Below, one piece after another: positions 1,015-17,917 of a stretch of DNA of 64,000 bases. The stretch covers positions 62,001 through 126,000 of the forward strand of contig NZ_JAVAMS010000003.1 in the NCBI RefSeq assembly GCF_030730945.1, given 5' to 3'. Made by a program: the position numbers and the translations under genes. This stretch comes from Aurantiacibacter poecillastricola. GTDB taxonomy: Bacteria > Pseudomonadota > Alphaproteobacteria > Sphingomonadales > Sphingomonadaceae. The notes under the pieces are model-generated. The model saw nothing but the letters and a program-made list of their open reading frames with translations, was not told the origin of the DNA and did not search any database. The number at the start of each line of letters is the position of its first letter. The stretch's first letter is position 1.

Positions 1015-3096
1015 CTACTCATCCAGCGCGAAGACGTAGACGGACGAGCTGTTCACCTCCGGGATCGGCAATTCCGGCGTGAAGTCCGGCAGACCGAAGG
1101 CGAGGGGATTGCCCATGCCGGTAACGACGGCGACATACTGCTTCCCGTCCACTGCATAGGTAATGGGGCTGGCATTGGGCACGCCGGTCAGGCCGCTGCG
1201 CCACACCTGCTCGCCGCTCGACTGGTCGTAGGCCAGGAATTCGCGGTCCATCGCGCCTGTGAACAACAAGCCGCTCCCCGTGGCGAGAATACCCGCATTG
1301 TAAGGCGCGCGGCGACGATGCTCCCACGCCACTTCGCCTGTTTCCATGTCTATGCCCTGCAGGATGCCGAAATTGCCGTCGCTATCGGGCGGGGCGGAGT
1401 AGTAGATGTCGACGCCGCTGGAGAGAAAGCCCTGCTCTGTCGGGCGCATTTCCATGCAGGTGTCGCGCGCGTTGACGAACAGCTTGGCGCTGTCCTTGGC
1501 AAAGGCCGTGGGGCTCCAGTTGCGCCCGCCACCTGCGTGCGGACACATGAACACGGCGTCGCGGTCCCGGCCCGGTAGCAGGGCGAGGTCGGCGGTCTTG
1601 CGGCCCGTTTCGGGATCGATGTCCACGATATAGGTCTGAAAGCCCATGTCGGCGGTGTCGAGATACTCGCCGGTGCGCACGTCCAGAGTGTCAAACAGAC
1701 CGTCCTTGCCGCCGGTGATGACGACATGGCGCTCCTCGCCCCCGACCTCGATATCGGCGATCACCCGCTCGAACACCCAGTCGAGATCGTACTGGTCGTT
1801 GGGCATGTGCTGAAAGTACCAGACGAGCTCACCAGTTCGCGGCTCGAAGGCGAGGGTGGAGTTGGTGAATAGCCCGTCATTGTTGCCGCCCGGAACGCGG
1901 TCCCGAACCGGGCCGGTATCGTAGGTCTGCGCGACGCCCCATAGCGCGAGGCCGGTCTCGGCGTCATAGCTGCCGCTCGTCCAGACGGAGCCGCCCTGCC
2001 GCTCGGCATCGGGCACCTCGTTCCAGGTATCCCCGCCAAGCGTGCCGCTCTTGGCGACGGTATCGAAATTCCAGAGGTGCTCACCCGTCTGCGCATCGAA
2101 AGCGGCGATCAGGCCGCCGCCGGGGCGCTGGGTGGCAAGGCCGATCATCACCACGCCATCGGCCACCAGCGGGCCGCCATTGCTGCGGGTGTTCTCGGCA
2201 TCGGGAATTGCAACGTCCCAGACGGGGCGACCCGTACGCGCATCGAGCGCCAGCATGTGCAGGTCGCTGGTGGCGAGGATCAGCATGTCGTCCCACAGGG
2301 CGATGGTCTTCTTGCCCTGCATCAGCGTGCCTTCCGGCATCTGGCGGCGATAGCGCCACAGCTGCCGCCCGGTCGCGGCATCGAAGGCAAACACCTCCTC
2401 GCCATAGGCATGGACGTACATTACCCCGTCGCGCACCAGCGGTTCTGCCATGGTGGGCCCGACCGGCAGGGCCTGCGCCCATGCGACCGAGAGATCGGAG
2501 ACATTGGCGGGCGTGATCTGGGTGAGGGGAGAGAAGCCCTGGCCCTCATGCCCGCGACGCCAGGCCATCCAGTTCTCGGGCGCGGGGGCGTCCAGCATGT
2601 CTGCAGTGACGGGCGTGTAATCGGCGAAGCGATCAACCGGCTCTTCCCATTCGGGGAAGGGGTAGAAAGTGCTGATGCCGCCGATGCCCAGCGCGTTCTG
2701 CTCCTCGATCGTCGGCGGTTCGGGCAGCGTGGCGCTGGCTAGCGTCAGTTCGGGATCGACGCCGTTCTCCACAAGGATGAGCGCAGTGAGGGCCTGATAG
2801 GTCTCGTCGCTAAGCCGCCCGCCGCCGCCGGGCGGCATGGAGGTGGAAATGTATTCGAGCAGCTCGCCTGCCGGAAGCTCGCCCCAGGTGGAGAGGAAGA
2901 CAGGGCCGGTCAGCGTGCCTGCGAACTGCCCGCCGGCGAGATCATCGCCATGGCAGGCGGCACAATTGGCAGCATAGGCCGTGCGTCCCGCATCCATTTG
3001 CGCGGCCAGCGTCGCGCTACCTTGCGCCGAGCCCGAACCGGCCAGCGCCAACGCTGCAAGCCCTGCTCCTGCGAGCAGCAAACCACTTCTGATCAT
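1015..3096 (-). CDS. Secreted quinohaemoprotein dehydrogenase: N-terminal cytochrome c, C-terminal PQQ propeller
   Basis: 693 residues with a Sec signal peptide (about 1-25). A class I cytochrome c domain comes first (CAACH at 45-49; likely Met ligand at 87 in SMPPG), followed from about residue 165 by an eight-bladed PQQ propeller with repeated 'DAATGRQLWRY'-like tryptophan-docking motifs. In type II quinohaemoprotein alcohol dehydrogenases the cytochrome is C-terminal; this order resembles polyvinyl-alcohol-dehydrogenase-like enzymes. Expected activity is periplasmic oxidation of an alcohol, with electrons passed internally from PQQH2 to haem c. The vicinal CC disulphide of methanol/ethanol dehydrogenases is not seen. 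The start has a strong GGGAGAGGG ribosome site. It is last in a minus-strand series, 39 bases after the esterase. The substrate is unknown. Confidence 0.88.
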   Translation of the reverse strand: MIRSGLLLAGAGLAALALAGSGSAQGSATLAAQMDAGRTAYAANCAACHGDDLAGGQFAGTLTGPVFLSTWGELPAGELLEYISTSMPPGGGGRLSDETYQALTALILVENGVDPELTLASATLPEPPTIEEQNALGIGGISTFYPFPEWEEPVDRFADYTPVTADMLDAPAPENWMAWRRGHEGQGFSPLTQITPANVSDLSVAWAQALPVGPTMAEPLVRDGVMYVHAYGEEVFAFDAATGRQLWRYRRQMPEGTLMQGKKTIALWDDMLILATSDLHMLALDARTGRPVWDVAIPDAENTRSNGGPLVADGVVMIGLATQRPGGGLIAAFDAQTGEHLWNFDTVAKSGTLGGDTWNEVPDAERQGGSVWTSGSYDAETGLALWGVAQTYDTGPVRDRVPGGNNDGLFTNSTLAFEPRTGELVWYFQHMPNDQYDLDWVFERVIADIEVGGEERHVVITGGKDGLFDTLDVRTGEYLDTADMGFQTYIVDIDPETGRKTADLALLPGRDRDAVFMCPHAGGGRNWSPTAFAKDSAKLFVNARDTCMEMRPTEQGFLSSGVDIYYSAPPDSDGNFGILQGIDMETGEVAWEHRRRAPYNAGILATGSGLLFTGAMDREFLAYDQSSGEQVWRSGLTGVPNASPITYAVDGKQYVAVVTGMGNPLAFGLPDFTPELPIPEVNSSSVYVFALDE

Positions 3097-3135
3097 CGCT
3101 TCCCTCTCCCCAGAAAGCGTGCAGCTTGCCGCAGA

Positions 3136-4806
3136 TTATTCGTCCGAGGCAAGCCCCAGCGGACCGCCGACCCGGTCCTGGTAAAGCGCATCGTAAAGCG
3201 CCGCCTTGTCCGCGCCGAACCACTCCGACACGCCGATATTGCCTGCATCGAGCACGAAGACCTCGTTCGCGTCCAGTTCGCCGATCGCGGGCCATTCTGG
3301 CAGGCCATCGCCATTGGGATTGCCGGTGCGAGCAAAATTCACCCAGTATTGCGAGACCTGATCGGCAAACGCCTCCTCGGTCTCGTTGCCGCACATCTGC
3401 TCCACCGACGATCCGCCGGGGAAGGTGCGCGGAGCGCACAGATTGTCGAACACGTAGGGAATCTCGCCGGTATGCGCCGCACCCAGATCGCCGCGGCCTT
3501 CATCGTAGGGTGGGTCGTGACGGAACCAGTAATGATAGGCGCCTTCGCCAATGTTGGACTGCCACTGCGCATATTGGCGCATCAGCCAGCTCATATTGTC
3601 GCCGAAGGGCTGCGTTGCGGTCACCTGCGCCTCCTCATCGGTCCTTACCGGGTATGCAGCGCGCCCCATCTCGGCCCGCTCGCCCCAGCGCATGGCCTCG
3701 CCCTGCTGCCAGCTTTCAAGCGTGGCGGGCGGGCCAAAAATGGCGGTGAAGCTGCCCTCATCCTCGTTGGAGCCGACCAGCACATCGACCGGCAATTGCC
3801 GCCCTTGCGAGAAGGTGACGGCCAGGTCCTCGGGGATGATGGCGCCGTCCACGATCATGCCCTGGCCGGAAATGTTCGCGTGAACTTCCTCCGCCGGAAG
3901 GGCGCGCAGTTCTGCAAGGCTGGTCGTGCCGAAATTCTCTTCAGCCGCGGCAAGACTTCGCTGCTGCGCCGTTTCACGCGGCACCATCTGCCCGATATTG
4001 AGGCCCTGGAACGTGCCGCTCTGCGCGATGGCGCGGGCGAACAGGCCCTCCGCCGGCGGAGCGCCCACCAACGCTGCATTCATGGCCGAGCCGGCGCTTT
4101 CGCCGAAGATGGTGACCCGCGAGGGATCGCCGCCGAAGGCCGCGATATTGTCCTGCACCCATTGCAGCGCGGCGATGGCATCGCCCAGCGCCTGGTTGCC
4201 GCTGGCGCCATTGGCCTCGGTAAGCTCAGGGTGCGCGAAGAAGCCCAGAGAGCCGACGCGGTAGTTGAAGGTGACCATCACCACGCCTTTGTCGGCTAGG
4301 TAGTCGCCCTGGCTGAACGGGCTTGAGCCGCCACCCTCGTTATACGCGCCGCCATAGAGCCACACCATCACCGGCAGGTTGGCGTCGGCAGTTTCGGCAG
4401 GCGTCCAGACGTTGAGATAAAGGCAGTCCTCCGACGTCCCGGGACTGTCCGGCATGTCGGTGGCGGAATTGACCGGGAAGCGCTGGGGCGCCGGGTTCTG
4501 GATGCAGCTGTCGCCCCAGCTGTCGGCGGTGAGGATACCGTCCCAGTCGGCAGCAGGCTGAGGCATTTCCCAGCGCAATTCGCCTACCGGCGGCGCGGCG
4601 AAGGGGATGCCCTTGAAGACGGTCACACCCTCCACTTTCTCGGAAGGCACGCCCTGCACGAGGCCGTTTTCGGTGGTGACCGGCGTGGAGGCGATCGTCG
4701 CAGCCTCCTGCGCAGAGGCGCCGTCAGTAGTGGCGCAAGCCGCCATTCCCATGCCGATCATCGCCAGCAGAGTGCCTTGTTCAAAAGCTTTCTTCATCGC
4801 ATCCAT
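3136..4806 (-). CDS. Type-B carboxylesterase, probable lipoprotein
   Basis: 556 residues from the chosen ATG; a second in-frame ATG nine bases inside (4797, MKKAFEQ) is equally possible. The N-terminus ends in a lipobox-like MAAC (residues 21-24), so the enzyme is probably anchored facing the periplasm. The alpha/beta-hydrolase core has the oxyanion region WLYGGAYNEGG, nucleophile motif GESAGS with Ser237, the acidic residue in GSNEDEGSF and His in AAHTGEIPY, i.e. an intact Ser-Glu-His triad of the carboxylesterase family. Length is normal. It lies between the WGDPD paralogues and the cytochrome c-PQQ dehydrogenase, which suggests that it frees an alcohol or acid that the PQQ enzymes oxidise. 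The substrate cannot be read from sequence. Confidence 0.88.
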   Translation of the reverse strand: MDAMKKAFEQGTLLAMIGMGMAACATTDGASAQEAATIASTPVTTENGLVQGVPSEKVEGVTVFKGIPFAAPPVGELRWEMPQPAADWDGILTADSWGDSCIQNPAPQRFPVNSATDMPDSPGTSEDCLYLNVWTPAETADANLPVMVWLYGGAYNEGGGSSPFSQGDYLADKGVVMVTFNYRVGSLGFFAHPELTEANGASGNQALGDAIAALQWVQDNIAAFGGDPSRVTIFGESAGSAMNAALVGAPPAEGLFARAIAQSGTFQGLNIGQMVPRETAQQRSLAAAEENFGTTSLAELRALPAEEVHANISGQGMIVDGAIIPEDLAVTFSQGRQLPVDVLVGSNEDEGSFTAIFGPPATLESWQQGEAMRWGERAEMGRAAYPVRTDEEAQVTATQPFGDNMSWLMRQYAQWQSNIGEGAYHYWFRHDPPYDEGRGDLGAAHTGEIPYVFDNLCAPRTFPGGSSVEQMCGNETEEAFADQVSQYWVNFARTGNPNGDGLPEWPAIGELDANEVFVLDAGNIGVSEWFGADKAALYDALYQDRVGGPLGLASDE

Positions 4807-4885
4807 CCCGGTTTGCCGCCCGCTCCCACAGGCCAGGTAAGACGGGCGCACCGGTCCTTCCGGCGCGCCCGCTTGCTGTCGGTTG

Positions 4886-6001
4886 TCAGGAACCGCTGCC
4901 TTCACCCTCGGCAGCGCCGCCCTCGGTGTTCTCCACCCCGGCGGCTGCCGCGGTGATGTAGTTGCGGATCTGCACGTTGCCTTCGTGGCAGGCATATTCG
5001 AAGAATTCGTATTCCTCGTCACGCGTCCAGTCGAGGCGGGCGGTCCACTTGTCGGTGAAGACCTCGGGATCGGTGTAGGTCAGTTCGTAGACGATGTGAT
5101 CGGGACCGGTCATCGTCAGCACTTCCCTGACATGGGCCTGGTCGCTAGTGGGAATGGTGTTGAAGGGCGGCACGCCCATCGTCGCCATGTTGAGCGGGCT
5201 GGGGCCGCGCTCGTAATTGTCTTCCGACACGCTGGCGCCATCCTCGATATTGGTGGTCTCGATCACCAGCTGGTTGCCTTCCCACCAGCCGATGGACTGA
5301 CCCATCCAGGTACGCACGTCTCCGGGCCAGCGCATTTCGGCGGCAGCCTCGGGCCCGTCGACGATCGGCACGACGCGGGCGTCGTGGATCATCTCCAGCG
5401 AAATGACGACATAGCCCGGTGCCTGCATCACGCGGATGCCGTTATTGTAGCGGAAGGGGAACATCGAGGCCGGAAAGCCGCGCGTCACGCAGCGATCCCA
5501 GGTGTCGAAATCGCTCACCCAGTCGAAATGCGTGTTCGGCGTCCAGCTGGATCGACCGCTCTCGTACATTTCCTGCGCCCAGTCGGTCATCGCGGGGAGT
5601 TGGCCATCCGCCGGATAGACCAGCAGGGAGGTGCGGCGGCCCGATGCATCGGATTCCACCCAGTGGCCAAAGCCGATGGTGCCGGCCTCGTCCTCCGCTT
5701 CGTAACGCTCGTCCGAGCCGGCTGCCTGCTGCAGGCGCTGCTCGTATTCGCGGTCATTGAGGTAGAAGCGGTCACCATATTGCGCGGGGCGCTGCATCGG
5801 GATGCTGGCGATGTTGTCGATGGGGAACATGCCGCGCAGGTCCGGGTCGCCCCAGGGGGTGCGCGGCGGCTCGAAATCGGTGGGTACTTCGGCGATGGTG
5901 GTAAGATCGTCGGGCACCACATCCTGCGCGGTGGCAGGCATCGCCAGCGCCAGCACGCTGGCGGTAACGATGGCGATGGTCTTGAAAGGGGTACGGGCCA
6001 T
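4886..6001 (-). CDS. Secreted WGDPD-family protein, paralogue 1 (function unknown)
   Basis: 371 residues with a signal peptide cleaved near ATAQD (about residue 26). Landmarks: WGDPD at 50-54, GHW at 112-114, WDRC with Cys171 followed by TRGFPASMFP and RYNNGIR, then QAPGYVVI, GWWEGN at 238-243 before ETTNI, and FEYACHEGN with Cys338 near the end. The two cysteines are conserved in all three paralogues and may form a disulphide. I recognise this as a widespread uncharacterised exported family but know no function. The ATG overlaps the stop of paralogue 2 by one base (TAATG), so translation is coupled. The C-terminal tail is acidic and Gly-rich. Confidence 0.85.
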   Translation of the reverse strand: MARTPFKTIAIVTASVLALAMPATAQDVVPDDLTTIAEVPTDFEPPRTPWGDPDLRGMFPIDNIASIPMQRPAQYGDRFYLNDREYEQRLQQAAGSDERYEAEDEAGTIGFGHWVESDASGRRTSLLVYPADGQLPAMTDWAQEMYESGRSSWTPNTHFDWVSDFDTWDRCVTRGFPASMFPFRYNNGIRVMQAPGYVVISLEMIHDARVVPIVDGPEAAAEMRWPGDVRTWMGQSIGWWEGNQLVIETTNIEDGASVSEDNYERGPSPLNMATMGVPPFNTIPTSDQAHVREVLTMTGPDHIVYELTYTDPEVFTDKWTARLDWTRDEEYEFFEYACHEGNVQIRNYITAAAAGVENTEGGAAEGEGSGS

Positions 6002-7122
6002 TATTCACTCTCCTCAGAATTTCGTGTTTGGGTGCCGCGACTGGCGGGGTCCATCGCGGGCGGAGGGCCGGCGTCGGGATCGATTGGCTCGACCATGGCA
6101 CCGCGCGCATATTCCTGTTCGCGCTTCGTGCGGTCGGCGGTGATGTAGTTGCGCACCTGCACGTTACCCTCGTGACAGGCGTATTCGTAGAATTGGTACT
6201 CGTCGTCGCGCGACCAGTTCACGCGCAGGGTAAAGTCGTCTTCCCACACAACCGGATCGGAATAGTGCATCTCGTAGGTGATCGTATCCGGCCCCACCAT
6301 GTGAAAGCGTTCGGTGACGGTCACCTCCTCGCTCATCGGGATCGTATTGCCCGAAGGCACGCCGCGCGTGGCGACGTTGAGGGCGGAGGCGCCCGGCTTG
6401 ATGTTCGTGGTGACGACCTCCAGCGTGTTGCCATCCACCCAGCGGCCTACGCTGTGACCGAACCAGCCATCTACGCCTGCAGGCCAGGGCTCGCCCTCGC
6501 CCGATACGGGGATGATCCGCGTGCCGAGCATTTCCAGCGCGATGGTGACGTAGCCCGGCGACTGGAAGATGCGTACGCCGTTGTTGTAGCGGAAGGGGAA
6601 CATGCTGGCGGGGAAGCCGCGCGTGATGCAGCGGTCCCAGCTGTCGAAATCGGTCACCCAGTCGAAGGTCTGACCCGTTACCCAGCTTGCCCGCATCAGG
6701 GCCGAGCGGCGCTCGCCTTCCTCGGTGAGGTCGGGGAGTTGGCCGTCCTGTGCGGAGACGATCATCGAGGTGCGGCGGCTGCCTGCCTGGTATTCGATCC
6801 AGTGCCCGAGGCCGATCGTGCCTTCCTCGTCCTCGCTCTCGTAGGCTTCCTCCAGCTGCTCGACCCGGCCCTGTTCCTGCGCGACTTCCTCTTCGGTTTT
6901 CCAGAAGCGGTTCCCGTACTGGGCCGGGCGGTTGACGGGCAGTTCGGCAAAGTCGTTCAGCGGCCAGATACCGGTAAAGTCTGGATCGCCCCACGAGGTG
7001 GTGGCGGGCGTGTAGTCGTCCGGCACCTCTGGCATGGTGGTAAGATCGTCGGGCACCTGCTGCGCCGCGACCGGCGCTGCGAGCGCCAGCGCTCCACAGC
7101 CGAGCAAAAAGCGTATCATCAT
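6001..7122 (-). CDS. Secreted WGDPD-family protein, paralogue 2 (function unknown)
   Basis: 373 residues from the ATG at 7122, which overlaps the upstream stop as ATGA with GGAGAGAG just before it; the frame is open further upstream but the overlap and signal peptide fix this start. A signal peptide ends near VAAQQ. It shares with its neighbours the SWGDPDF motif, GHW, WDRCITRGFPASMFP, RYNNGVRIFQSPGYV, GRWVDGN and EYACHEGNVQVRNYI. It is shorter in the segment after the ETTNI-equivalent region than paralogues 1 and 3. Presumably it acts in the periplasm with the PQQ dehydrogenases next to it. No enzymatic motif is recognised. Confidence 0.85.
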   Translation of the reverse strand: MMIRFLLGCGALALAAPVAAQQVPDDLTTMPEVPDDYTPATTSWGDPDFTGIWPLNDFAELPVNRPAQYGNRFWKTEEEVAQEQGRVEQLEEAYESEDEEGTIGLGHWIEYQAGSRRTSMIVSAQDGQLPDLTEEGERRSALMRASWVTGQTFDWVTDFDSWDRCITRGFPASMFPFRYNNGVRIFQSPGYVTIALEMLGTRIIPVSGEGEPWPAGVDGWFGHSVGRWVDGNTLEVVTTNIKPGASALNVATRGVPSGNTIPMSEEVTVTERFHMVGPDTITYEMHYSDPVVWEDDFTLRVNWSRDDEYQFYEYACHEGNVQVRNYITADRTKREQEYARGAMVEPIDPDAGPPPAMDPASRGTQTRNSEESE

Positions 7123-8195
7123 CTCTCTCCATCCGCTGCCGAAGCGCGTTCGGCGCGGCTTGCGGTTATGTAATCCCGGATCTGCACGTTGCCTTCGTGG
7201 CAAGCGTATTCGAAAATCTTGTAGGTATCGTCACGGCTCCAATCGAGCCTGGCCGTCCACGGTCGGGTGAAAACCTGCGGATCGGTGTAGGTCACTTCGT
7301 AGACGAGCTGGTCCGGCCCCGTCATCGTGATGCGTTCGACCACGCGAGCTTCCGGGCTGGTTGGCAGCGTATTCCACGGCTCGCGCCCATGTGTTGCGAG
7401 GTTCAAGGGCGAGGGGCCGCGTGCGAGGTGATCCTCCTCCGCGCTGTCGCCGGTGCGGATATTGGTCGTCTCGACTACCAGCGTATTGCCGTCCCACCAG
7501 CCGAGCGACTGGCCGAGCCATGTGCGCACGTCCTCCGGCCAGCGCCGTGCCTCCATCTCGCTGCGCGCCATGACGGGGATGACCCGGTCCTCGTGGACCA
7601 TCTCGGTCTTGATCACGACATAGCCGGGCGCCTGCATCACGCGGATGCCGTTATTGTAGCGGTGCGGCATCATCGTTGCGGGAAAGCCGCGGGTAATGCA
7701 GCGGTCGAAGGTGTCGAAGTCCGACACCCAGTCGAAGTCGACGCCGTCCGTCCAGCTGGATCGGCCTGCCTCGTACTTCTCGCGCGCCCACGGGGTGAGT
7801 TCAGGCACACGGCCATCGGGCGGCGACACCAGCAGCGAGGTTCGGCGACCCGAGGTGTTCGCCGACAGGAATGCGGCGAAACCGAGTCTGTCGCTGGCCT
7901 CTGCCGCGCTGGTGCTCCTCTCCTCTGTCGCAGCGATCTGCTGCTGGCGCTCCGCATACTCTTCGTCAGTCAGCCAGAAGCGGTTCTCGTATTCGGGCAG
8001 CCGCTCGAAAGGGATGCTGGCGATGTCGTCGATGGGGAAGGTGCCGCGGAAATCGGGATCGCCCCAGCTTGTGCGGGGCGGAGCAAAATCGGTCGGCACG
8101 GGCGGCATTACGGTCAGGTCTCCCGGCACGTCCTGCGCGCTCGCCGGCAGGGCCAGCGAGGCGGCAGTCAGTGCAAGGAGGGCCCTTCCATTCAC
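7119..8195 (-). CDS. Secreted WGDPD-family protein, paralogue 3 (function unknown)
   Basis: 358 residues from a GTG at 8195 (VNGRALLAL...), which overlaps the TAG stop of the upstream PQQ gene by one base. A longer frame exists but lies inside that gene, and only this start gives a signal peptide (cleavage near ASAQD). Motifs as in the paralogues: SWGDPDF, WDRCITRGFPATMMP, RYNNGIRVMQAPGYVV, GWWDGN, EYACHEGNVQIRDYI. Paralogue 1 is its closer relative (shared RGPSPLN and NTLPTS/NTIPTS segment). Translation is probably coupled on both sides. Confidence 0.85.
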   Translation of the reverse strand: MNGRALLALTAASLALPASAQDVPGDLTVMPPVPTDFAPPRTSWGDPDFRGTFPIDDIASIPFERLPEYENRFWLTDEEYAERQQQIAATEERSTSAAEASDRLGFAAFLSANTSGRRTSLLVSPPDGRVPELTPWAREKYEAGRSSWTDGVDFDWVSDFDTFDRCITRGFPATMMPHRYNNGIRVMQAPGYVVIKTEMVHEDRVIPVMARSEMEARRWPEDVRTWLGQSLGWWDGNTLVVETTNIRTGDSAEEDHLARGPSPLNLATHGREPWNTLPTSPEARVVERITMTGPDQLVYEVTYTDPQVFTRPWTARLDWSRDDTYKIFEYACHEGNVQIRDYITASRAERASAADGER

Positions 8196-10278: not shown

Positions 10279-10296
10279 CAGAGGCAATTTGTCTCA

Positions 10297-10947
10297 TTAT
10301 GTCGCAGGCGCATCCTCTGCCGACTGCATTTCGTGCCCCTCTACCGAACCCTGCGGCCCCTCGGCAGCGCCTTCCAGCGGCCTCTCGAATTCCCCGGCGG
10401 AGGTAAAGACCGTCGCGTTGGTCATCCCGCCACTCGCCTCGAGGCGCAAGGTGACATTGTCCATCGTGCGGTTCTCCCAGAACCAGCCGTGGATGCCGGT
10501 GAAGGCGGGGGTGTAGCGCCCGTAGATCTCCCGCGCCTCGTCAACGCCGTAGCTTTCGGTGACTTCCTCCCCCCCATCGAAGGGGTGGGCGTGCATGTCA
10601 TAGGCGAGCGTATCCGTGCCTTGCCAGTGAAAGGTCATCGGTTCGCCTTCGGGCATGGTGTATTTGAACTCGACGGATTCGAACGGCAGCAGCTCGTATT
10701 CCCATACGTCGGTAATTCCGTCCGAAGCGGGAAGGGCGGTTTGGGAAACGGTGAGCACCTCCTCGTTCTCCATCCGCGCCATGCCGCGCTCCAGCTCCAG
10801 ATTGGTCGGCTCGGCGATCTCGGTGAGGCCCAGTGCTTCGCCCGCGCCGGAGGGGTCCCAGCCGGTCTCGGCGGGCAGGATCACGAGGACGGCAAGGGCA
10901 GCGCCTGCCAGCAAGACACCTCCGGCGATGATCGGGGCTTTGCTCAT
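10297..10947 (-). CDS. Membrane-anchored periplasmic protein paired with HupE-like protein
   Basis: 216 residues. The start ATG overlaps the stop of the HupE-like gene as ATGA. There is one N-terminal membrane segment (about 5-25, IIAGGVLLAGAALAVLVI), followed by a soluble part with EYELLPFESVEFKY, a FHWQGTD segment and an aromatic-rich TGIHGWFWENRT motif, then an acidic tail. The same pair (HupE/UreJ-type protein plus a single-pass 'transmembrane anchor' protein) occurs elsewhere in proteobacteria, often near metal or respiratory genes; that association is from memory. The histidines in HWQG and DMHAHP could bind metal, but the role is unknown. Confidence 0.75.
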   Translation of the reverse strand: MSKAPIIAGGVLLAGAALAVLVILPAETGWDPSGAGEALGLTEIAEPTNLELERGMARMENEEVLTVSQTALPASDGITDVWEYELLPFESVEFKYTMPEGEPMTFHWQGTDTLAYDMHAHPFDGGEEVTESYGVDEAREIYGRYTPAFTGIHGWFWENRTMDNVTLRLEASGGMTNATVFTSAGEFERPLEGAAEGPQGSVEGHEMQSAEDAPAT

Positions 10948-11651
10948 GTCGAGAAATATCCTTCCAGTTGGTATGCAGTGAGCGCGATCCCGACGAGGAT
11001 CAGCGCGATATTGGCGTAAAGCGCATAGCGCTTGAAGCTGGCAGTATGGCGCCACGCAGCCAGCGCCAAGACGACGACGGTCAGCACCAGTATCTGGCCC
11101 AGTTCCACGCCGACATTGAAGGCGATCAAGTTGGCGAGCAGTCCATCGGGCGAGACCTCCAGGTCCAGCACCTTGGTTGCGAGGCCGAGGCCATGAAACA
11201 GGCCGAACACCAACACCGCGATGCGGGTGTCGAAATGCCAGCCCAGCTTCTCGAACCCGCCGATATTCTCTACGCCCTTGTAAATCACCGACACGCCGAT
11301 GATCGCATCCACGATATAGGCGTTCACGCCCGTTTCCAGCAGCACGCCGCCGATCAGCGTGATCGAATGGCCGATGGCGAAGGCCGAGACGTAAAGGAGC
11401 ACGTCCTTCAGGCGGCGCAGGAAAAAGACCACGCCGATGAGGAAGGCGATGTGGTCATAGCCCGTCACCATATGCTTGGCGCCGAGATACATGAAGGGGA
11501 TGATCGCGGGGCCCTCGATCGTGCGAACGAAAGCCTTGTCCCCCTCCGCCACGTCATGCGCTAGGGCCTCTAACGGCAAGGCGAGGGCGACGAGGACGAG
11601 CAGCGCCGCGACGGGAAGGACAGGCGAGAGGGGAGGACGCCTAGTCGGCAT
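10944..11651 (-). CDS. HupE/UreJ-family integral membrane protein
   Basis: 235 residues from the ATG at 11651, which has GGAGG four bases upstream inside the preceding gene and overlaps it by 11 bases. A cleavable signal or first helix is followed by about six membrane helices. Family hallmarks are the conserved HMVTGYDHIAF motif after helix 1 and the FGLFHGLGLA motif in the middle. HupE/UreJ proteins are linked to nickel or other transition-metal supply for hydrogenase or urease; neither enzyme is present here, so in this locus it may supply metal or act in cytochrome or PQQ-enzyme maturation. That role is inference. Confidence 0.85.
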   Translation of the reverse strand: MPTRRPPLSPVLPVAALLVLVALALPLEALAHDVAEGDKAFVRTIEGPAIIPFMYLGAKHMVTGYDHIAFLIGVVFFLRRLKDVLLYVSAFAIGHSITLIGGVLLETGVNAYIVDAIIGVSVIYKGVENIGGFEKLGWHFDTRIAVLVFGLFHGLGLATKVLDLEVSPDGLLANLIAFNVGVELGQILVLTVVVLALAAWRHTASFKRYALYANIALILVGIALTAYQLEGYFST

Positions 11652-12201
11652 CGGCCTCCTCGACATACTCCTCCAGCGACAGGTCCTCATTCGGGCGTGG
11701 CTGGGCGACGTCGTCCACGGTCACGCCTTCGGGCAGGACTTCGGGCGGATACATGCGATGGCAGGCCGAGCAGACCGAGTAGATCGTGCCGCCGGTTTCG
11801 AAAACGGCCTCCGGATCCTTCGCCAGCGCCGCTTCCTGCGCCTGCGCGGCGGCATCGACCAAGCCTTGCGAGTAGGCCATCCAGTCGTCGCCGCGCCCTT
11901 CCGCATAGGCAGGAGTCATGAGGATCTCGCCCAGCTCGCCAAGGCGCACTGCGGCGGCGTGGACATCGTTCCACTCGGCGTCGGTCTCGGGCTCCCACTC
12001 GCGAAAAACCGGCTCTCCATCGATCAGTTCGCTGGCGGATCCGACCGATTCCCAGAAGACTTCAGCCGTGGGCTGCATTTCCTGCGCCATCATCTGCTGG
12101 GCGGTGCCGAGCGGGGGCGCCTCCGCCTCCTGTCCGCCGCAAGCCGCAAGCGAAAGGGCAACGAAAAGCGCGCCGGTCGTGCTGAGTTTTTCCAGTTTCA
12201 T
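11641..12201 (-). CDS. Cytochrome c lipoprotein, class II (c'/c556)-like
   Basis: 186 residues from the ATG at 12201, preceded by GGAGGTACGAGG. The lipobox LAAC ends at Cys21. The protein is mostly helical and carries its single haem motif CSACH at 144-148 near the C-terminus, the arrangement of class II cytochromes c (c' and c556). It heads the minus-strand operon with the HupE-like and anchor genes and is divergent from a class I cytochrome c gene. It probably accepts electrons from one of the haem-free PQQ dehydrogenases. Whether the sixth ligand is a methionine or open cannot be decided by eye. Confidence 0.82.
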   Translation of the reverse strand: MKLEKLSTTGALFVALSLAACGGQEAEAPPLGTAQQMMAQEMQPTAEVFWESVGSASELIDGEPVFREWEPETDAEWNDVHAAAVRLGELGEILMTPAYAEGRGDDWMAYSQGLVDAAAQAQEAALAKDPEAVFETGGTIYSVCSACHRMYPPEVLPEGVTVDDVAQPRPNEDLSLEEYVEEADAD

Positions 12202-12426
12202 CCTCGTACCTCCAGCAACCATGAGTATCGCAATACCCTGCCTTGCTGCCTCCAACCTGACATGGTACTGCGCCCTCTCATTGACAATGTCCAATTTTTT
12301 CGAGGGTCAGGCCCTGCAATAAATCTGCGGTAAAGCTTGACTGCGCTACACCACTTATTGACTAGGGCCAAGATTGGCGCCGCAGGGCGTGAACCGGCCT
12401 ACCGAAGACCAAGGGGTTTGATACAG
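12202..12426. promoter_or_regulatory. Divergent promoter region between two cytochrome c genes
   Basis: 225 bases separate the minus-strand class II cytochrome from the plus-strand class I cytochrome, so promoters for both must lie here. Its centre (about 12280-12360) is more AT-rich than its surroundings, with TTGACA at 12281 and TTGACT at 12337. Neither has a convincing -10 at the right distance. No confident operator was found. Confidence 0.5.
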
Positions 12427-12810
12427 ATGTCCGTCAATGTGAAGAAGTTCGCCAAGATTACTGCCAGTGCACTGGGTGCCGCCGCCCTGGCTGCACCTGC
12501 TTTCGCCCCTGTCGCGCAGGAAGATGCCGAGGCCGCCCATGCCGAAGTCGCCCCCCTGACGGAGGTGGAGGTTGAAGCCAGTCGCACGCTGTTCAGCCAA
12601 TATGGCTGCGGCTCGTGCCACGCTCTGGCCGATGCCAATGGCTATGGCTCGATCGGCCCATCGCTCGACGGGAACGACACGCTGACGGTCGACTATGTGA
12701 ACACCATCATTACCAACGGACAGGGCGCAATGCCCAGCTTCGGCGGCATGGTTGGCGAGGAAGACCTCGAAAAGCTCTCGCGTTATATTGTGGAATATAA
12801 GGCGGACTGA
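12427..12810 (+). CDS. Periplasmic class I cytochrome c
   Basis: 127 residues from the ATG at 12427 (the frame is open upstream but only this start gives the signal peptide, cleaved near APAFA). One haem motif CGSCH at 61-65 and a likely axial Met102 in GAMPSFGG, followed by a typical C-terminal helix LEKLSRYIVEYK. This is the pattern of small c-type cytochromes that take electrons from PQQ alcohol dehydrogenases (cytochrome cL/c550-like) and pass them to the oxidase. It is the only plus-strand gene in the PQQ locus, is monocistronic and is followed by a strong terminator. Confidence 0.9.
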   Translation: MSVNVKKFAKITASALGAAALAAPAFAPVAQEDAEAAHAEVAPLTEVEVEASRTLFSQYGCGSCHALADANGYGSIGPSLDGNDTLTVDYVNTIITNGQGAMPSFGGMVGEEDLEKLSRYIVEYKAD

Positions 12811-12836
12811 TCGTCCGCGAACAGGTCAAACAGGGG

Positions 12837-12861
12837 AAGGGGGCTTCGCGGCCCCCTTTTT
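12837..12861 (+). terminator. Intrinsic terminator after the cytochrome c gene
   Basis: Stem AAGGGGGC (12837-12844) with GCCCCCTT (12851-12858), a 6-base loop TTCGCG and a T-run to 12861, 26 bases after the stop. It lies between convergent genes; the T-run is only on the plus-strand side, so it mainly serves the cytochrome gene. Confidence 0.9.
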
Positions 12862-12865
12862 CGTG

Positions 12866-13846
12866 TCAGTCGTCGCGTTCCTGCGCGGTGCGGGAATTCG
12901 GCCCGACCTGCGCGAAATAGTTGGTCACGCCGTCGGGGTCGTTCAGCCATACGGTGGTGAGGTCGAAGCCGCGCAGGCGATTGAGCGGGGTCTCCACCGG
13001 GATATCGCGGTGGCGGGCGCGAACGTCCACCATGGCCGCATCGCTCACGACATACTGGATACCCGAACTGCCCGTGTCACCTGCGTTCGCGTCAACCTGG
13101 TGGAGGTAGATCGTGGTCTCGCCGTGATTGTAGGGATAGCGGGTAATGCCAAGCGCCGCGCTTTCCTGTGCATCCAGTTCGTCGAGGCCGACGAACTCGC
13201 GATAGAAGGCGCGGCTTTCGGCCATGTCGGAAACGCCGATGCCTACGCCTACGCCGTCGTTCGAATGGTCCTGGAAATCCTCTCCGGTGACGATCTCGAT
13301 GATAAGGCCAGCTGGATCGCTGACCCAGCCGCTGCGCGTGCCGTCGCCGCGTTCCTGCAGGGTCGGCGGCTCGAAGCCTGCCTCCTCGAAGCGCTGGATG
13401 ACGGTTTCGGCATCGGGATAGGTGAGGCGCAGGTAGCGAATGCCGGTGCCGCCGGTCCAGCCGCCGGAAAGGTCGTAGCTGCGCTCACCTTGCTGACCTG
13501 CCGAAAGCTTGACCTGTCCGCTGCCGACGCCTGTCAGGATCATCTGCTGCGTGTCGGTGAGCTGGATGGGATTGAGCGAACGCAGGGCCAGCGCCTCCGT
13601 GTAGAAGCGCACCATCTCCCCAGTCAGCTCGCGCGGGAAACGGCGAAACACGTTCATTGATCCTTGCGCGAACAGCGCGCGATTGTCGTCCTCCAGCGTG
13701 GCGGTGTCGAACGCGTCTATCGCATAGGCGAGGTCGCCGCTGGTATCGAGCAGCGCGCCTTCGGGCGTGCGGACTTCCTCCTCCTGCGCGGAAGCGGTGC
13801 AGGCGGCGAGTGCGGTAGCGGCTAATGTAGCGAGAGCGATGCGCAT
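12866..13846 (-). CDS. Exported lipoprotein with two VOC (glyoxalase/dioxygenase-fold) domains
   Basis: 326 residues. The lipobox-like ALAAC near residue 15 marks it as an exported lipoprotein, which is unusual because most VOC proteins are cytoplasmic. Two VOC-type halves can be traced: about 65-175 (FYTEALAL, RYLRLTYPDAETVIQRFEEAGF, SDPAGLIIEIV) and about 197-318 (GIGVSDMAESRAFYREFVGLDEL, TTIYLHQVDAN, NDPDGVTNYFAQV). Such folds usually bind a divalent metal and act as glyoxalase, extradiol dioxygenase, epimerase or binding protein. Metal ligands could be His in YLHQV and Glu in IEIV, but I cannot assign them firmly. It is last in the operon, 4 bases after a PQQ dehydrogenase, so it probably acts on or binds its product. 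Confidence 0.82.
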   Translation of the reverse strand: MRIALATLAATALAACTASAQEEEVRTPEGALLDTSGDLAYAIDAFDTATLEDDNRALFAQGSMNVFRRFPRELTGEMVRFYTEALALRSLNPIQLTDTQQMILTGVGSGQVKLSAGQQGERSYDLSGGWTGGTGIRYLRLTYPDAETVIQRFEEAGFEPPTLQERGDGTRSGWVSDPAGLIIEIVTGEDFQDHSNDGVGVGIGVSDMAESRAFYREFVGLDELDAQESAALGITRYPYNHGETTIYLHQVDANAGDTGSSGIQYVVSDAAMVDVRARHRDIPVETPLNRLRGFDLTTVWLNDPDGVTNYFAQVGPNSRTAQERDD

Positions 13847-13850
13847 GGTC

Positions 13851-15782
13851 TTAGTCCTCGGGTAGCGCCCAGACGATCAGGCTTTCATTGTTGAGCGGGC
13901 CGTCCGGCCCCATCTGCGGCGGTCCGAAACCGGATCCGGCTGCCACAACGGCGATATATTGCCGCCCGTCCGCGCCGCGATAGCTCATCGGGATGGTGTT
14001 GGCGGCGTAATCGAGCTGCTCTTCCCATACCACTTCTCCCGTGGCCGAATCGAAGGCGCGGAAGATGCCGTCGTCCGTCGCGCCGATGAAGACGAGGCCG
14101 CCAGCGGTCGCCATCGGACCGCCGAAGGTGTTGTTGGCACCGGTATCCTGCTTGTCCGCCCCCAGTTCGGGTGTGGTGCCGAGCCGCGTTGCCCAGGCGA
14201 CTTCGCCGCTATTGGCATCCACGGCAACGAGGCGACCCCAGGGCGGGCGGATGCAGGGGAGAGTGACATTGCTGCCATCTTCCGCCGTGAAACTGGCGGA
14301 GAAGCTGGAATAGGCTCCCGGTCCCGATAGCGAACCGCGGTCGTATTCCTGCGTGCTCGCATCGGTGCCGCGGCCGTAATTTCCCTCGGGATCGCGCTTC
14401 TCGATCCAGCCGATGGAGCCGCTCTCGCTGGTATTGACGAACACATAGCCGCGCACGGGATCTACCGCGCTGCCGCCCCAGTTGGAGCCGCCATTGTGCG
14501 ACAGGTTGATACTCGCGCGCGGAGGGTCGCCGTCTTCGTGCAGGAAGAAGGGGGTGAAAGGCCCGGCGTTGAAGAAGCTGCCGCCATAGCTGTCCAGTAG
14601 CGCATGGCAGGCGGCGACGTGCTCTTCGTTCGTATCCTCCGCCGTCACAACGTCGTCGGGTGTCCACCACATGCGCGAAAGCGGTTCGGGCTTTACCGGG
14701 ATCGGCTGGGTTGGCGAATACCATTCGCCGGGCACATCGGCGCGGGCAACGAGCATTTCGTTGACGCCGTGCACCGGCTCTCCCGTGCGGCGGTCGAGAA
14801 TATACATGAGGCCGGGCTTGCCGGTCTGGGCGAGGGCGGGGATGGTCTCGCCGTCCACCTCCACGTCCACCAGCACGGGAGGGGCGGGCAGGTCCCAGTC
14901 CCACAGATCGTGGTGGATGGTCTGGAAGTGCCAGCGATATTCGCCGCTGCGCGCGTCGAGGGCGAGGATGGAATTGCCGAACAGGTTGTCGCCCGGACGA
15001 TCGCCGCCGTAATAGTTCGGCGCAGGCGAGCCGAGCGTCATGTAGATCATGCCGGTGTCCACATCGCCGGTCATGTACCACACCCACATGTTGTTGCCGG
15101 GGCGGTCCTTCCAGCCATCGTCGAGCCATGTCTCGTGCCCGATCTCGCCCGGCTGGGGGACGGTGTTGAAGTCCCACAACAGCTCACCAGTGCGCGCATC
15201 GTAGCCCTTGGAATTGCCGAGCGGTCCGGTGGGCAGTTCGGGCGTGGAGGCGCCGATCACCAGCACATCGCCGAAGATGCTGGGCGGGTAGGAATAGCGC
15301 ACCTCGAACGGCACGCGGCCCGCTTCGCCGAAGTCCGTTGCGATCTCGCCAGTGGCGGCGTCGAGCGCGACGATCTCGTTACCGCCATTGTAGTAGAGCC
15401 TTGCCCCCGTCTCGCCATCGCCCGCCCAGTAGGTGACGCGGCGGCGCACGGTCGCGCCCTCGATCGCGTGCCGCCAGAGCTCGCGCCCGGTATGCGCTTC
15501 CAGAGCCACCACGGCCTGCCCCAGCGGCAGGTACATGATCCCGTCCACAACGCTCGGCACGGTGCCTGCGAGGATGAAGCCGCCACCCTCGGGCCGCAGG
15601 CGGTATTCCCACGCCCGTTCCAGATCGCCCACATTCTCGCGCGTGATATCGGCAAGGGGAGCGTAGCGCTGGCCTGCATGGTTGCGGGCGTAATGCGGCC
15701 AGTCGCCTTCGGCGGGTTCCTCCTGCGCAGCGGCGGGAAGGGTGAGCAAAGCGCTGGCGAGCAATCCTGCAAGAAGTCTCAT
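13851..15782 (-). CDS. PQQ-dependent dehydrogenase, glucose/quinate type, secreted
   Basis: 643 residues from the ATG at 15782, which overlaps the upstream stop as ATGA. Signal peptide about 1-20 (LTLPAAAQ). PQQ propeller with the IHHDLWDWDLP signature, YYGGDRPGDNLFGNSILALD and a HNGGSNWGG segment. No CXXCH and no vicinal CC pair, so a separate electron acceptor is needed. It resembles the PQQ enzyme at 8195-10174 more than the two haem-containing ones. It is coupled upstream to a quinohaemoprotein ADH and downstream to the exported VOC protein, so the three may carry out successive steps on one compound. Confidence 0.87.
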   Translation of the reverse strand: MRLLAGLLASALLTLPAAAQEEPAEGDWPHYARNHAGQRYAPLADITRENVGDLERAWEYRLRPEGGGFILAGTVPSVVDGIMYLPLGQAVVALEAHTGRELWRHAIEGATVRRRVTYWAGDGETGARLYYNGGNEIVALDAATGEIATDFGEAGRVPFEVRYSYPPSIFGDVLVIGASTPELPTGPLGNSKGYDARTGELLWDFNTVPQPGEIGHETWLDDGWKDRPGNNMWVWYMTGDVDTGMIYMTLGSPAPNYYGGDRPGDNLFGNSILALDARSGEYRWHFQTIHHDLWDWDLPAPPVLVDVEVDGETIPALAQTGKPGLMYILDRRTGEPVHGVNEMLVARADVPGEWYSPTQPIPVKPEPLSRMWWTPDDVVTAEDTNEEHVAACHALLDSYGGSFFNAGPFTPFFLHEDGDPPRASINLSHNGGSNWGGSAVDPVRGYVFVNTSESGSIGWIEKRDPEGNYGRGTDASTQEYDRGSLSGPGAYSSFSASFTAEDGSNVTLPCIRPPWGRLVAVDANSGEVAWATRLGTTPELGADKQDTGANNTFGGPMATAGGLVFIGATDDGIFRAFDSATGEVVWEEQLDYAANTIPMSYRGADGRQYIAVVAAGSGFGPPQMGPDGPLNNESLIVWALPED

Positions 15783-17917
15783 CGCGTTTCCTCCTCGGCG
15801 GCACGGCGCCCCGCTTCGCTCAGCACATAGGCGCGGATCGCCTCGGACTGTTCGGCGTCGATCCACGGGGCGAAGCTGATCATGCCATTATCCGACAAGA
15901 GCCCGTCCATGACGACAGCGTTCCACGCATCGGCATCGGTCGCATAGACGCTGCGCATCAGGTTCGGATTGACCGGCCCGTTATGGCAGATTGTGCAGAA
16001 GCCGAGATAGGCCTGCTGGCCCGTCGCAATGGTTTCGGCGCTGAATGTCTCGCCGGTCGAGACATAGGGCGGCGGCACGTGCGGGGGGAGGGGCGTGTAA
16101 CCCGCATCGCCGTCCAGCTTGAAGACGAACAGCATGCCGTTGGGCGGCGGGCGGCGCATCCAGTCGGACTGGCTTGCCATGCCCATCGAGCCGCCATAGC
16201 CAGCGACGATGGCGACATACTGCGTGCCCTCCACCGCGTAGGAGATGCCGCCGGCCACGATCCCGCGCTGTCCATCGAAGCTCCACAGATGTTCGCCGTC
16301 GCGCGCGTCATAGGCGTTGAACGTGCCATCGGGCAGGCCCTGGAAGACGAGGTTGCCCGCCGTCGCCAGCGTGCCGCCATTCCACGGCCAGTCGCGCTCG
16401 ATGCTCCAGCGCGCCTCCTGCGCCACCGGGTCCCAGGCCAGCAGAGTGCCCTTGGTGTTGGCGGTGACGTAAGCGCGGCGCGCTTCGGGCGTATCGCCGG
16501 GCACCAGTCCCTCGGGCGGGGTGAGGAAGATGACGCCGGTGTTCCAGCGCCCGATATTTCGCGTGTAATCCACATCGTCCATGTAAGCAGACGGGGTCTG
16601 CATGGCGGGGATGTAGACGAGGCCCGTCTGCGGCGAATAGCTCATCGGGTGATAGGCATGCGCGCCAAGCCCGCTTGGGGTGACGAGATAAGGCGCATCG
16701 GCAAAACGCGCCTCGGGAATTTCCACCGGGCGGCCCGTTTCCATGTCGATCCGCTCGGCCCAGTTCTGCTGTGCGTAGGGTTCCGCGCTCAGCAGCGTGC
16801 CGTCACGCCGGTCGAGGATGTAGAAGAAGCCGTTCTTGGGGGCTTGCATCACGACAGGCACGCTCTCGCCGCCGATGTCCATATCGGTCAGCGTCATCTG
16901 CTGGGTGGCGGTAAAGTCCCACGTCTCGCCGGGGTTCTGCTGGTAGTGCCAGTTATAGACCCCGGTATCGGGGTCGAGCGAGAGGATGGAGGCGAGGAAG
17001 AGATTGTCGCCCTCGCCATTGCTGCGCGCGCGGTGATTCCAGGGCGAACCATTGCCGACGCCAATCAGCAGTTGGTCGAGCTCGGCATCGTAGACGATCG
17101 AATCCCACACCGTACCGCCGCCGCCCATTTCCCACCATTCGCCCGCCCATGTGTCGGTGGCGAACTGCTCGAATACGGCATCGGACGCCGCGCCGTCGGG
17201 GCCATCGGCAGGGTTGCCCGGCACGGTGTAGAAGCGCCACACCTGCTCGCCGGTATCTACGTCGTAGGCGCCGACATAGCCGCGCACGCCCAGCTCCGCG
17301 CCCGAATTGCCGATGATGACCTTGTCCTTCACCACGCGCGGCGCGCTGGTGATGGTGTAGGGCTGCGACTGGTCCACCGTAACGACGTCCCATACCTCCT
17401 CGCCGCTCGCGGCATCGAGCGCGACGAGCCGCCCGTCGATGGTTCCCACGAACACCTTGCCGTCCCACACCGCGACCCCGCGATTGACGACGTCGCAGCA
17501 AGTATGCGCGCCCTTCGCGCCATCGACTTCGGGATCGTAGAACCACAGCCGCTCGCCAGTTGCGGCATCGAGCGCCAGCACTTTCGACCACGCGGTGGAG
17601 ACATACATCACCCCGTCCACCACAATGGGCGTCGCTTCCTGCCCGCGATTGGTATCGAACTCCACCGCGAAGGCGAGGCCGAGCCGGTCCACGTTACCGG
17701 CGTCGATCTGGTCCAGCGGACTGAAGCGATCCTCGTTCCAGGTGCGGCCATGCACCAGCCAGTTGGCGGGATCGCTATCGGCGGCGAGCAGGCGCTCCTG
17801 CGTGACATGGCCCGCGCCGTGGTCGCTCGCCTGCAAGCTGCCAAAGGCCAGCGCGCCAAACGTCAATCCGACACCACCGAACGCGGAAAGGAAACGCCGT
17901 CCTGCCATGTATCCCAT
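15779..17917 (-). CDS. Type II quinohaemoprotein alcohol dehydrogenase (PQQ propeller plus C-terminal cytochrome c)
   Basis: 712 residues from the ATG at 17917; ATG 17908 (MAGRRFLSAF) is an alternative. The N-terminus has a twin-arginine GRRFL before a hydrophobic stretch, so Tat export is possible, although PQQ-ADHs normally use Sec. Features: vicinal disulphide CC at 140-141, as in methanol/ethanol dehydrogenases; GNGSPWNHRARSNGEGDNLF with the probable catalytic Asp; NPGETWDFTATQ; and a C-terminal cytochrome c domain with CTICH at 641-645 and likely ligand Met679. It oxidises primary or secondary alcohols in the periplasm and passes electrons through its own haem to the nearby cytochrome c. 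It heads the PQQ-PQQ-VOC operon. Confidence 0.9.
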   Translation of the reverse strand: MGYMAGRRFLSAFGGVGLTFGALAFGSLQASDHGAGHVTQERLLAADSDPANWLVHGRTWNEDRFSPLDQIDAGNVDRLGLAFAVEFDTNRGQEATPIVVDGVMYVSTAWSKVLALDAATGERLWFYDPEVDGAKGAHTCCDVVNRGVAVWDGKVFVGTIDGRLVALDAASGEEVWDVVTVDQSQPYTITSAPRVVKDKVIIGNSGAELGVRGYVGAYDVDTGEQVWRFYTVPGNPADGPDGAASDAVFEQFATDTWAGEWWEMGGGGTVWDSIVYDAELDQLLIGVGNGSPWNHRARSNGEGDNLFLASILSLDPDTGVYNWHYQQNPGETWDFTATQQMTLTDMDIGGESVPVVMQAPKNGFFYILDRRDGTLLSAEPYAQQNWAERIDMETGRPVEIPEARFADAPYLVTPSGLGAHAYHPMSYSPQTGLVYIPAMQTPSAYMDDVDYTRNIGRWNTGVIFLTPPEGLVPGDTPEARRAYVTANTKGTLLAWDPVAQEARWSIERDWPWNGGTLATAGNLVFQGLPDGTFNAYDARDGEHLWSFDGQRGIVAGGISYAVEGTQYVAIVAGYGGSMGMASQSDWMRRPPPNGMLFVFKLDGDAGYTPLPPHVPPPYVSTGETFSAETIATGQQAYLGFCTICHNGPVNPNLMRSVYATDADAWNAVVMDGLLSDNGMISFAPWIDAEQSEAIRAYVLSEAGRRAAEEETR

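What the first reader, a model, noticed from the sequence alone, without database searches (positions are those of the whole stretch)
1015..17917. Large periplasmic PQQ / cytochrome c locus with no described substrate
Seen: four distinct PQQ propeller dehydrogenases, an esterase, three WGDPD proteins, two cytochromes c, a HupE-type/anchor pair and an exported VOC protein, almost all in coupled minus-strand genes. Known: PQQ alcohol dehydrogenases deliver electrons to cytochromes c, and quinohaemoproteins carry their own haem. Inference: it is a dedicated peripheral pathway that opens an ester and oxidises the freed group stepwise outside the cytoplasm. I know of no named system with this composition. 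No transporter or PQQ synthesis gene is visible in the window.
Basis: partly seen in the sequence, partly recalled or inferred. Interest (0 to 1): 0.7.

Follow-up and report, generated by a model that had tools for sequence, protein, structure and literature searches.

The report
Conserved periplasmic quinoprotein oxidation block
A run of about seventeen genes for exported enzymes, possible carriers and electron-transfer proteins is inherited as one unit in several genera of related bacteria and probably oxidises an unknown ester or alcohol outside the cytoplasm, although these bacteria seem unable to make the PQQ cofactor that its enzymes need.

Summary
In detail: four PQQ propeller proteins, a type-B carboxylesterase, three WGDPD proteins, two c-type cytochromes, a HupE/anchor pair and an exported VOC protein lie at 1015-17917, mostly in abutting minus-strand genes. 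The window cuts the locus: a fifth PQQ protein, a DUF6152 protein, a distant WGDPD relative and most of one of two divergent membrane genes lie just left of it. The rightmost gene (15779-17917) is an optional neighbour. All five quinoproteins keep the catalytic Asp, the Lys and the PQQ-stacking Trp. None of the 22 carriers has PqqE or PqqC, so PQQ must come from outside; no clear PqqU orthologue was seen in the 19 carriers searched. The WGDPD family matches no Pfam or NCBIfam model and models as a calycin-like barrel (weak). A periplasmic ester/alcohol oxidation pathway is the best reading; the substrate, the stepwise order and even that it is one pathway are inferred. It is a new variant of a known kind.

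The parts
1..302 (+). R14, membrane protein paired with R15, 3' part (178 aa in all; starts 234 bases left of the window)
   Evidence: 18 of 21 relatives at 42-67%; gene joined across the window edge; its 5' piece has no Pfam match, the whole was not scanned; likeness to DUF6644 is inferred from the pairing
315..833 (+). R15, DUF6644 membrane protein (172 aa), divergent from the main run
   Evidence: PF20349 31.6 bits against cut-off 27; 18 of 21 relatives at 59-78%
1015..3096 (-). R16, exported quinohaemoprotein: N-terminal cytochrome c domain followed by a PQQ propeller (693 aa)
   Evidence: Pfam; propeller nearest in PDB to ADH-IIG 22vi and sorbose dehydrogenase 4mh1; 14 of 21 relatives, N-terminal CXXCH in 12 of 14 predicted proteins, the other two predicted short
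3136..4806 (-). R17, type-B carboxylesterase with lipobox (556 aa)
   Evidence: COesterase 332 bits; best PDB match fumonisin B1 esterase 8s6d, 251 bits, closely followed by 8wdm, 247 bits; 21 of 21 relatives
4886..6001 (-). R18, WGDPD protein, exported
   Evidence: AlphaFold model
6001..7122 (-). R19, WGDPD protein, exported
7119..8195 (-). R20, WGDPD protein, exported (GTG start)
8195..10174 (-). R21, GDH-type soluble quinoprotein with lipobox
   Evidence: PF01011 561 bits; TIGR03074 395 bits, cut-off 832.65; 21 of 21 relatives at 56-81%
10297..10947 (-). R22, one N-terminal helix (TM) plus a beta-sandwich with invariant His119, His121, His153
   Evidence: (21 sequences); 16 of 21 relatives
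10944..11651 (-). R23, HupE/UreJ family membrane protein (start at 11651 is my choice)
   Evidence: PF13795 166 bits; 16 of 21 relatives
11641..12201 (-). R24, lipoprotein with one CXXCH, cytochrome c'-like
   Evidence: PF01322 E 0.0016, below cut-off; lipobox Cys and CXXCH near-invariant (17 genomes); 17 of 21 relatives
12427..12810 (+). R25, small exported cytochrome c
   Evidence: PF13442 49 bits; 20 of 21 relatives
12866..13846 (-). R26, exported VOC-fold protein, lipobox read by eye
   Evidence: PF00903 38 bits; 19 of 21 relatives
13851..15782 (-). R27, GDH-type soluble quinoprotein; right edge of the conserved core
   Evidence: PF01011 542 bits; 19 of 21 relatives at 63-80%
15779..17917 (-). 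R28, type II quinohaemoprotein alcohol dehydrogenase with C-terminal haem; optional neighbour
   Evidence: TIGR03075 636 bits over cut-off 480; PDB 1kv9 671 bits; 7 of 21 relatives, one of these (G191, 42%) apart from the block

Best explanation
A conserved periplasmic oxidation unit for one class of ester-bearing or alcohol-bearing organic compound, probably hydrophobic. The lipoprotein esterase R17 frees a hydroxyl (inferred). Three GDH-type quinoproteins (R13, R21, R27) and the haem-bearing quinoprotein R16 oxidise hydroxyl or hemiacetal groups (chemistry from family; substrate inferred). Electrons go to the small cytochromes R24 and R25 and on to a cytochrome oxidase elsewhere (inferred). 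WGDPD proteins would act as calycin-like binding proteins for substrate or intermediates (inferred from a weak fold match). The membrane proteins R14/R15, R23 and R22 would serve the membrane side: electron entry, metal supply or anchoring (inferred). PQQ is taken from the surroundings (inferred), since the carriers lack two marker genes of its synthesis (shown).
For: The same 22 of 249 genomes hold the WGDPD protein (E<=1e-20) and the esterase (E<=1e-100); 227 hold neither. Order kept in three settings. Most block proteins carry export signals or lipoboxes as read by eye. Catalytic Asp, Lys and stacking Trp kept in 5 of 5 quinoproteins against E. coli gcd. CXXCH near-invariant in R24 and R25. 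A flavin monooxygenase plus hydrolase beside the block in G014 and G165 and a Baeyer-Villiger-like monooxygenase plus hydrolase beside it in G234 (read by eye) fit a degradation locus. The WGDPD model resembles FABP/CRBP barrels. PqqE in 0 and PqqC in 0 of 22 carriers.
Against: No substrate evidence. The fold match of WGDPD has no hit at E<=1e-3 and TM about 0.2 on the query. TonB receptors beside the block differ between genera, so no dedicated uptake gene travels with it. R16, the only haem-bearing quinoprotein of the core, is missing in 7 of 21 relatives, two of these (G117, G034) read only in part. DUF6152 and a DUF6644-like gene occur together in other families with no relative of a block quinoprotein in the 1.5 kb flanks examined, so part of the block may have a function not tied to PQQ. 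Carriers are related genera, so the 22 are not independent.
Confidence: 0.5

Rival explanations
1. A detoxification or quenching unit: it inactivates a class of bioactive natural products (as mycotoxin-oxidising quinoproteins and fumonisin esterase do) rather than feeding growth.
For: Esterase best PDB match is fumonisin B1 esterase; the R16 propeller is nearest to sorbose dehydrogenase and PQQ alcohol dehydrogenases; PQQ-dependent mycotoxin oxidation by an alphaproteobacterium fed PQQ by a partner is in print (PMC8779532 and PMC10467086, abstracts read).
Against: The esterase match is only 251 bits, close to general carboxylesterases at 219-247 bits; five quinoproteins are much for a single inactivation step.
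Confidence: 0.2
2. A quinoprotein island: several separate oxidations that share electron carriers and regulation but not one substrate.
For: The propellers are 26-47% identical to each other; R16 and R28 come and go; extra genes differ by genus.
Against: R17 and R21 in 21 of 21, R13, R26, R27 in 19 of 21 relatives, in fixed order.
Confidence: 0.2
3. A respiratory or metal-handling module around DUF6152, DUF6644, HupE and the His-bearing anchor R22, to which quinoproteins were added.
For: A DUF6644-like gene lies within 1.5 kb of DUF6152 in 16 of 30 loci (30 of 46 listed matches became loci), none of the 16 with a block-type quinoprotein in view; HupE family members move metals (recalled); invariant His in R22.
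Against: Does not explain the esterase, the VOC protein and the WGDPD proteins; R22 and R23 are each missing in 5 of 21 relatives.
Confidence: 0.1

Closest known systems
Devosia PQQ-dependent oxidation of deoxynivalenol with PQQ from a partner (PMC8779532, PMC10467086; abstracts read)
   Same: PQQ-dependent oxidation in an alphaproteobacterium that depends on PQQ from outside
   Different: No esterase, WGDPD, DUF6152/DUF6644 or HupE block is described in the abstracts read
Fumonisin degradation by Sphingopyxis (FumD carboxylesterase, FumI aminotransferase; passages of PMC10204369 read)
   Same: Type-B carboxylesterase of a kind reported mainly from Sphingomonadaceae
   Different: No aminotransferase in the block; quinoproteins dominate here
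ped/exa cluster of Pseudomonas (passages of PMC12997753 read)
   Same: Periplasmic PQQ dehydrogenases with a dedicated cytochrome c
   Different: Of three haem-bearing block proteins scanned (R16, R24, R28) only R16 touches the PedF model, 16 bits against cut-off 122; core quinoproteins are of GDH and sorbose-dehydrogenase types; no regulator was recognised in the core
Polyvinyl alcohol operon of sphingomonads (recalled; no sequence compared)
   Same: N-terminal haem plus PQQ propeller, hydrolase and cytochrome c together; need for supplied PQQ (all recalled)
   Different: Hydrolase family, three extra quinoproteins and the WGDPD proteins (recalled comparison, not tested by sequence)

Membership tests
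Membrane-bound glucose dehydrogenase (TIGR03074) | Score over the curated cut-off 832.65 | tested here: not met
   395 bits (R21) and 370 bits (R27); R13 was not scored against it
Membrane-bound glucose dehydrogenase | N-terminal membrane domain | tested here: not met
   Alignment with E. coli gcd leaves about the first 110-140 residues of gcd unmatched in R13, R21, R27
Membrane-bound glucose dehydrogenase | Asp466 and Lys493 of gcd (roles recalled) | tested here: met
   Kept in R13, R21, R27; gcd His262 (role recalled) is not kept
Type II quinohaemoprotein alcohol dehydrogenase | PQQ propeller over the TIGR03075 cut-off, vicinal Cys pair, C-terminal CXXCH | tested here: met
   R28 only: 636 bits, Cys140-Cys141, CXXCH 641-645
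Acido-empty-quinoprotein (TIGR04528) | Score over cut-off 650 | tested here: not met
   192-342 bits for R16, R21, R27, R28; R13 not scored
Fumonisin degradation cluster | FumD-type esterase acting on tricarballylic esters | tested here: inconclusive
   Best PDB match 8s6d, 251 bits, next 8wdm 247 bits; activity not testable here
Fumonisin degradation cluster | FumI aminotransferase in the cluster | tested here: not met
   None among the block genes scanned with Pfam
ped/exa system | PedF/ExaB cytochrome c550 | tested here: inconclusive
   R16 16.4 bits against cut-off 122, R24 and R28 no match; R25 was not scanned against NCBIfam
Polyvinyl alcohol operon | Sequence kinship of R16 with PVA dehydrogenase and of R17 with oxidised-PVA hydrolase | not tested
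   No reference sequence fetched; architecture likeness is recalled
PQQ producer | PqqE and PqqC encoded in the genome | tested here: not met
   PqqE 0 of 22 carriers (6 of 249 in all); PqqC 0 of 22 carriers, 2 of 2 positive controls; other pqq genes not searched
PqqU-type PQQ importer present | Orthologue of E. coli PqqU | tested here: inconclusive
   19 of 22 carriers searched: best 81 bits at 26% identity (G240), 79 bits (G232), the best of each other carrier 42-54 bits over partial stretches; no genome with a known PqqU as control, binding residues not checked

The most novel reading that the evidence does not exclude
A new periplasmic catabolic system in which uncharacterised calycin-like WGDPD carriers hand a hydrophobic ester or alcohol between an esterase and up to five quinoproteins, in bacteria that cannot make PQQ and import it by a route other than PqqU.
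Probability: 0.3. Interest if true: 0.7.

Novelty: new variant of a known kind. Interest (0 to 1): 0.45.

Why it matters
It gives a fixed gene set, with a complete presence/absence contrast in the family sample, for finding the substrate of a large unannotated periplasmic pathway, and a handle on the unnamed WGDPD family. It also exposes a gap: in this family 205 of 249 genomes have PQQ dehydrogenase propellers and 6 have PqqE, whereas the PqqU survey (PMC12124388, abstract and passages read) found PqqU in one alphaproteobacterium and inferred that this class mostly makes its own PQQ. How these bacteria obtain PQQ can be tested directly.

Tried and rejected
Uptake genes as part of the locus: of the genes left of the window, the TonB receptor R07 and the MFS gene R09 have one 29% match each among 21 relatives and the hydrolase R08 none, rejected as members. 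The kinase, 2-hydroxyacid dehydrogenase, GST and ApbA genes at 18021-21756 accompany the block in 10 of 21 relatives and are not in the stretches read of the other 11, rejected as core members. Plasmid spread of the WGDPD family: one weak partial match in 72,556 plasmid records, rejected. R16 on plasmids: 323 records match at E<=1e-30, all below 60% identity, 4 over at least 80% of the protein; the best, a Sphingobium plasmid, has the match in two ORFs in another setting. Empty quinoprotein: rejected on score and residues. Lanthanide use: an Asp two places after the catalytic Asp is present in R13, R16, R21 and R27, but E. coli gcd has it too, so no conclusion. R22 fold: GOLD, thiol dioxygenase and cupin beta-sandwiches at E 2e-4 to 1e-3, too weak to name a function. 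Papers: no paper in the library holds DUF6152, DUF6644 or WGDPD.

Full report
WHAT IS THERE. The window is positions 62001-126000 of contig C23 of a 3.88 Mb genome in 34 contigs, listed as 100% complete. I number the genes R11 to R28 from left to right. R11 (DUF6152), R12 (distant WGDPD relative) and R13 (GDH-type quinoprotein) lie left of the window at C23:58037-61361; R14 straddles the edge; R15 to R28 are in the window. I chose the starts of R27 (15782) and R23 (11651) so that they follow the neighbouring stops; other starts are possible.

IS IT A UNIT? A WGDPD query finds 22 of 249 family genomes at E<=1e-20, in 7 of 96 genera. The esterase finds 22 of 249 at E<=1e-100, and the two lists are the same 22; 227 genomes have neither. 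One genome of the window's own genus (G213) is among the 227. Across 21 relatives (the window's own genome left out) tblastn finds R17 and R21 in 21, R25 in 20, R13, R26 and R27 in 19, R11, R12, R14, R15 and R18 in 18, R24 in 17, R19, R22 and R23 in 16, R16 in 14, R28 in 7 and R20 in 1. R18, R19 and R20 are paralogues, so their separate counts depend on best-hit assignment. Three relatives are held on short stretches (G034 8,280 bases; G117 20,000 of 32,370 bases read; G193 24,823), which lowers these counts; in G117 and G034 most of the core is absent from what was read, whether by loss or by assembly. Gene order and the strand switches (R14/R15 and R25) are otherwise kept. The block lies beside R29-R34 in 10 of 21 relatives; in genus g66 it lies beside a sugar-phosphate guanylyltransferase (4 genomes) and aldolase/DhaK-like genes (3 of 4), and in g69 beside a TonB receptor and, where the contig goes on, an ABC export set (names read by eye). 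A fixed core in changing surroundings is what a functional unit looks like. The 22 are related genera, not 22 independent events.

WHO CARRIES IT. In the named collection the closest WGDPD loci are from Aurantiacibacter, Alteraurantiacibacter, Croceibacterium, Altericroceibacterium and Altererythrobacter, plus MAGs called Erythrobacter, Sphingobium, Novosphingobium, Sphingomonas and Caulobacteraceae (519 relatives found, best 80 kept, 79 loci). In all 79 loci tblastn finds R22 in 22, R24 in 22 and R26 in 26 (stop-free matches at E<=1e-8). A fuller tblastn over 16 of the 79, 13 of them MAGs, shows a block-like set in two (Sphingobium BIN35 L159 and Sphingomonas RYN_533 L141); 11 hold a single WGDPD match alone. 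So many WGDPD genes are single paralogues outside the block; the window's genome has two more such genes. In a phylum-wide draw WGDPD matches are rare: 8 of 398 genomes at E<=1e-10, 4 of these from the family. Outside the family, relatives of R11, R12 and R15 sit together in G594 (L209) without a match to a block quinoprotein, and in G391 (L206/L207), where a weak 65-bit match to R28 lies about 2 kb away. DUF6152 itself is in 27 of 299 genomes of the phylum, and a DUF6644-like gene is within 1.5 kb in 16 of 30 loci. So R11/R12/R14/R15 look like an older module (inference).

THE QUINOPROTEINS. R13, R21 and R27 align with E. coli glucose dehydrogenase without its membrane domain; R16 has an N-terminal haem domain and a propeller nearest to sorbose dehydrogenase-type enzymes; R28 is a standard type II quinohaemoprotein alcohol dehydrogenase. 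R21 has only weak kin of solved structure (117 bits at best). The residues aligned with gcd Asp466, Lys493 and Trp404 are kept in all five; gcd His262 is in none; R28 has the vicinal Cys pair. The roles of these residues are recalled. R27 and R13 are 47% identical, the other pairs 26-35%.

PQQ SUPPLY. PqqE is found in 6 of 249 family genomes, none of the 22 carriers. PqqC is in 0 of 22 carriers and 2 of 2 positive controls. PF01011 at E<=1e-30 is in 205 of 249, all 22 carriers and all 6 PqqE genomes included, so 199 of 205 genomes with such a propeller lack PqqE. E. coli is a known case of the same kind (passage of PMC12124388). The same paper found PqqU in one alphaproteobacterium and inferred that the class mainly produces PQQ; the present family does not fit that inference. 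A PqqU query gives only weak TonB-receptor matches in the 19 carriers searched; no genome with a known PqqU was included, so absence is not proved. Devosia strains that oxidise deoxynivalenol with PQQ from a Pseudomonas partner (PMC8779532, PMC10467086; abstracts) show that such dependence works.

THE UNKNOWN PROTEINS. The WGDPD model (43 sequences, mean pLDDT 80.6, pTM 0.80) gives 0 PDB hits at E<=1e-3. Of the 50 hits shown (2e-3 to 1.1e-2), 49 are fatty-acid, retinol or retinoic-acid binding proteins and one is a nitrophorin, with TM 0.26-0.50 on the target and 0.15-0.22 on the query. A hydrophobic ligand is therefore a lead, not a result. R22 has one N-terminal helix and a beta-sandwich (pLDDT 78.9, pTM 0.69) like GOLD and cupin-type domains (8 hits at E<=1e-3), with three invariant His among 21 sequences.

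MECHANISM. Shown: co-inheritance, export signals as read by eye, retained active-site residues, two small haem proteins, no PqqE or PqqC. Inferred: ester cleavage first, hydroxyl oxidation next, electrons through R24/R25 to an oxidase, ligand carriage by WGDPD proteins, membrane roles of R14/R15/R22/R23. The substrate is unknown. The family of R17 and the relatives of R16 allow very different substrates. A monooxygenase and a hydrolase beside the block in three relatives (read by eye) fit a degradation role.

VERDICT. The extent was cut by the window, and the last gene is an accessory. It is a new variant of the known kind of periplasmic quinoprotein/cytochrome c oxidation loci. Its interest lies in the clean gene-set definition, the unnamed WGDPD family and the PQQ supply question.

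Noticed in passing
whole family, 249 genomes sampled: 205 of 249 have PQQ dehydrogenase propellers but only 6 PqqE; the PQQ import route of this family is unknown, and the PqqU survey assumed that alphaproteobacteria mostly produce PQQ.
   Followed up: partly
L027 (C29:172000-191900): A second likely exported oxidation cluster: two PQQ propeller proteins amid several tandem exported SnoaL-like proteins and a TonB receptor (read by eye).
   Followed up: no
L219-L248: DUF6152 next to a DUF6644-like gene in several families without a block-type quinoprotein in the 1.5 kb flanks (16 of 30 loci); no paper in the library names either.
   Followed up: partly
window 25108-25444: tmRNA gene marked tmRNA* by ARAGORN (permuted form, recalled meaning) with tag ANDNEALAIAA.
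   Followed up: no
window 18021-21756: Kinase with a glycerate-kinase look (by eye), D-2-hydroxyacid dehydrogenase, GST and ApbA genes in one run, beside the block in 10 of 21 relatives.
   Followed up: partly
L180 (plasmid AP027332.1, Sphingobium sp. TomTYG65): 40% relative of R16 in two adjoining ORFs on a plasmid typed as conjugative, near TonB receptor, CoA ligase and MFS genes.
   Followed up: no
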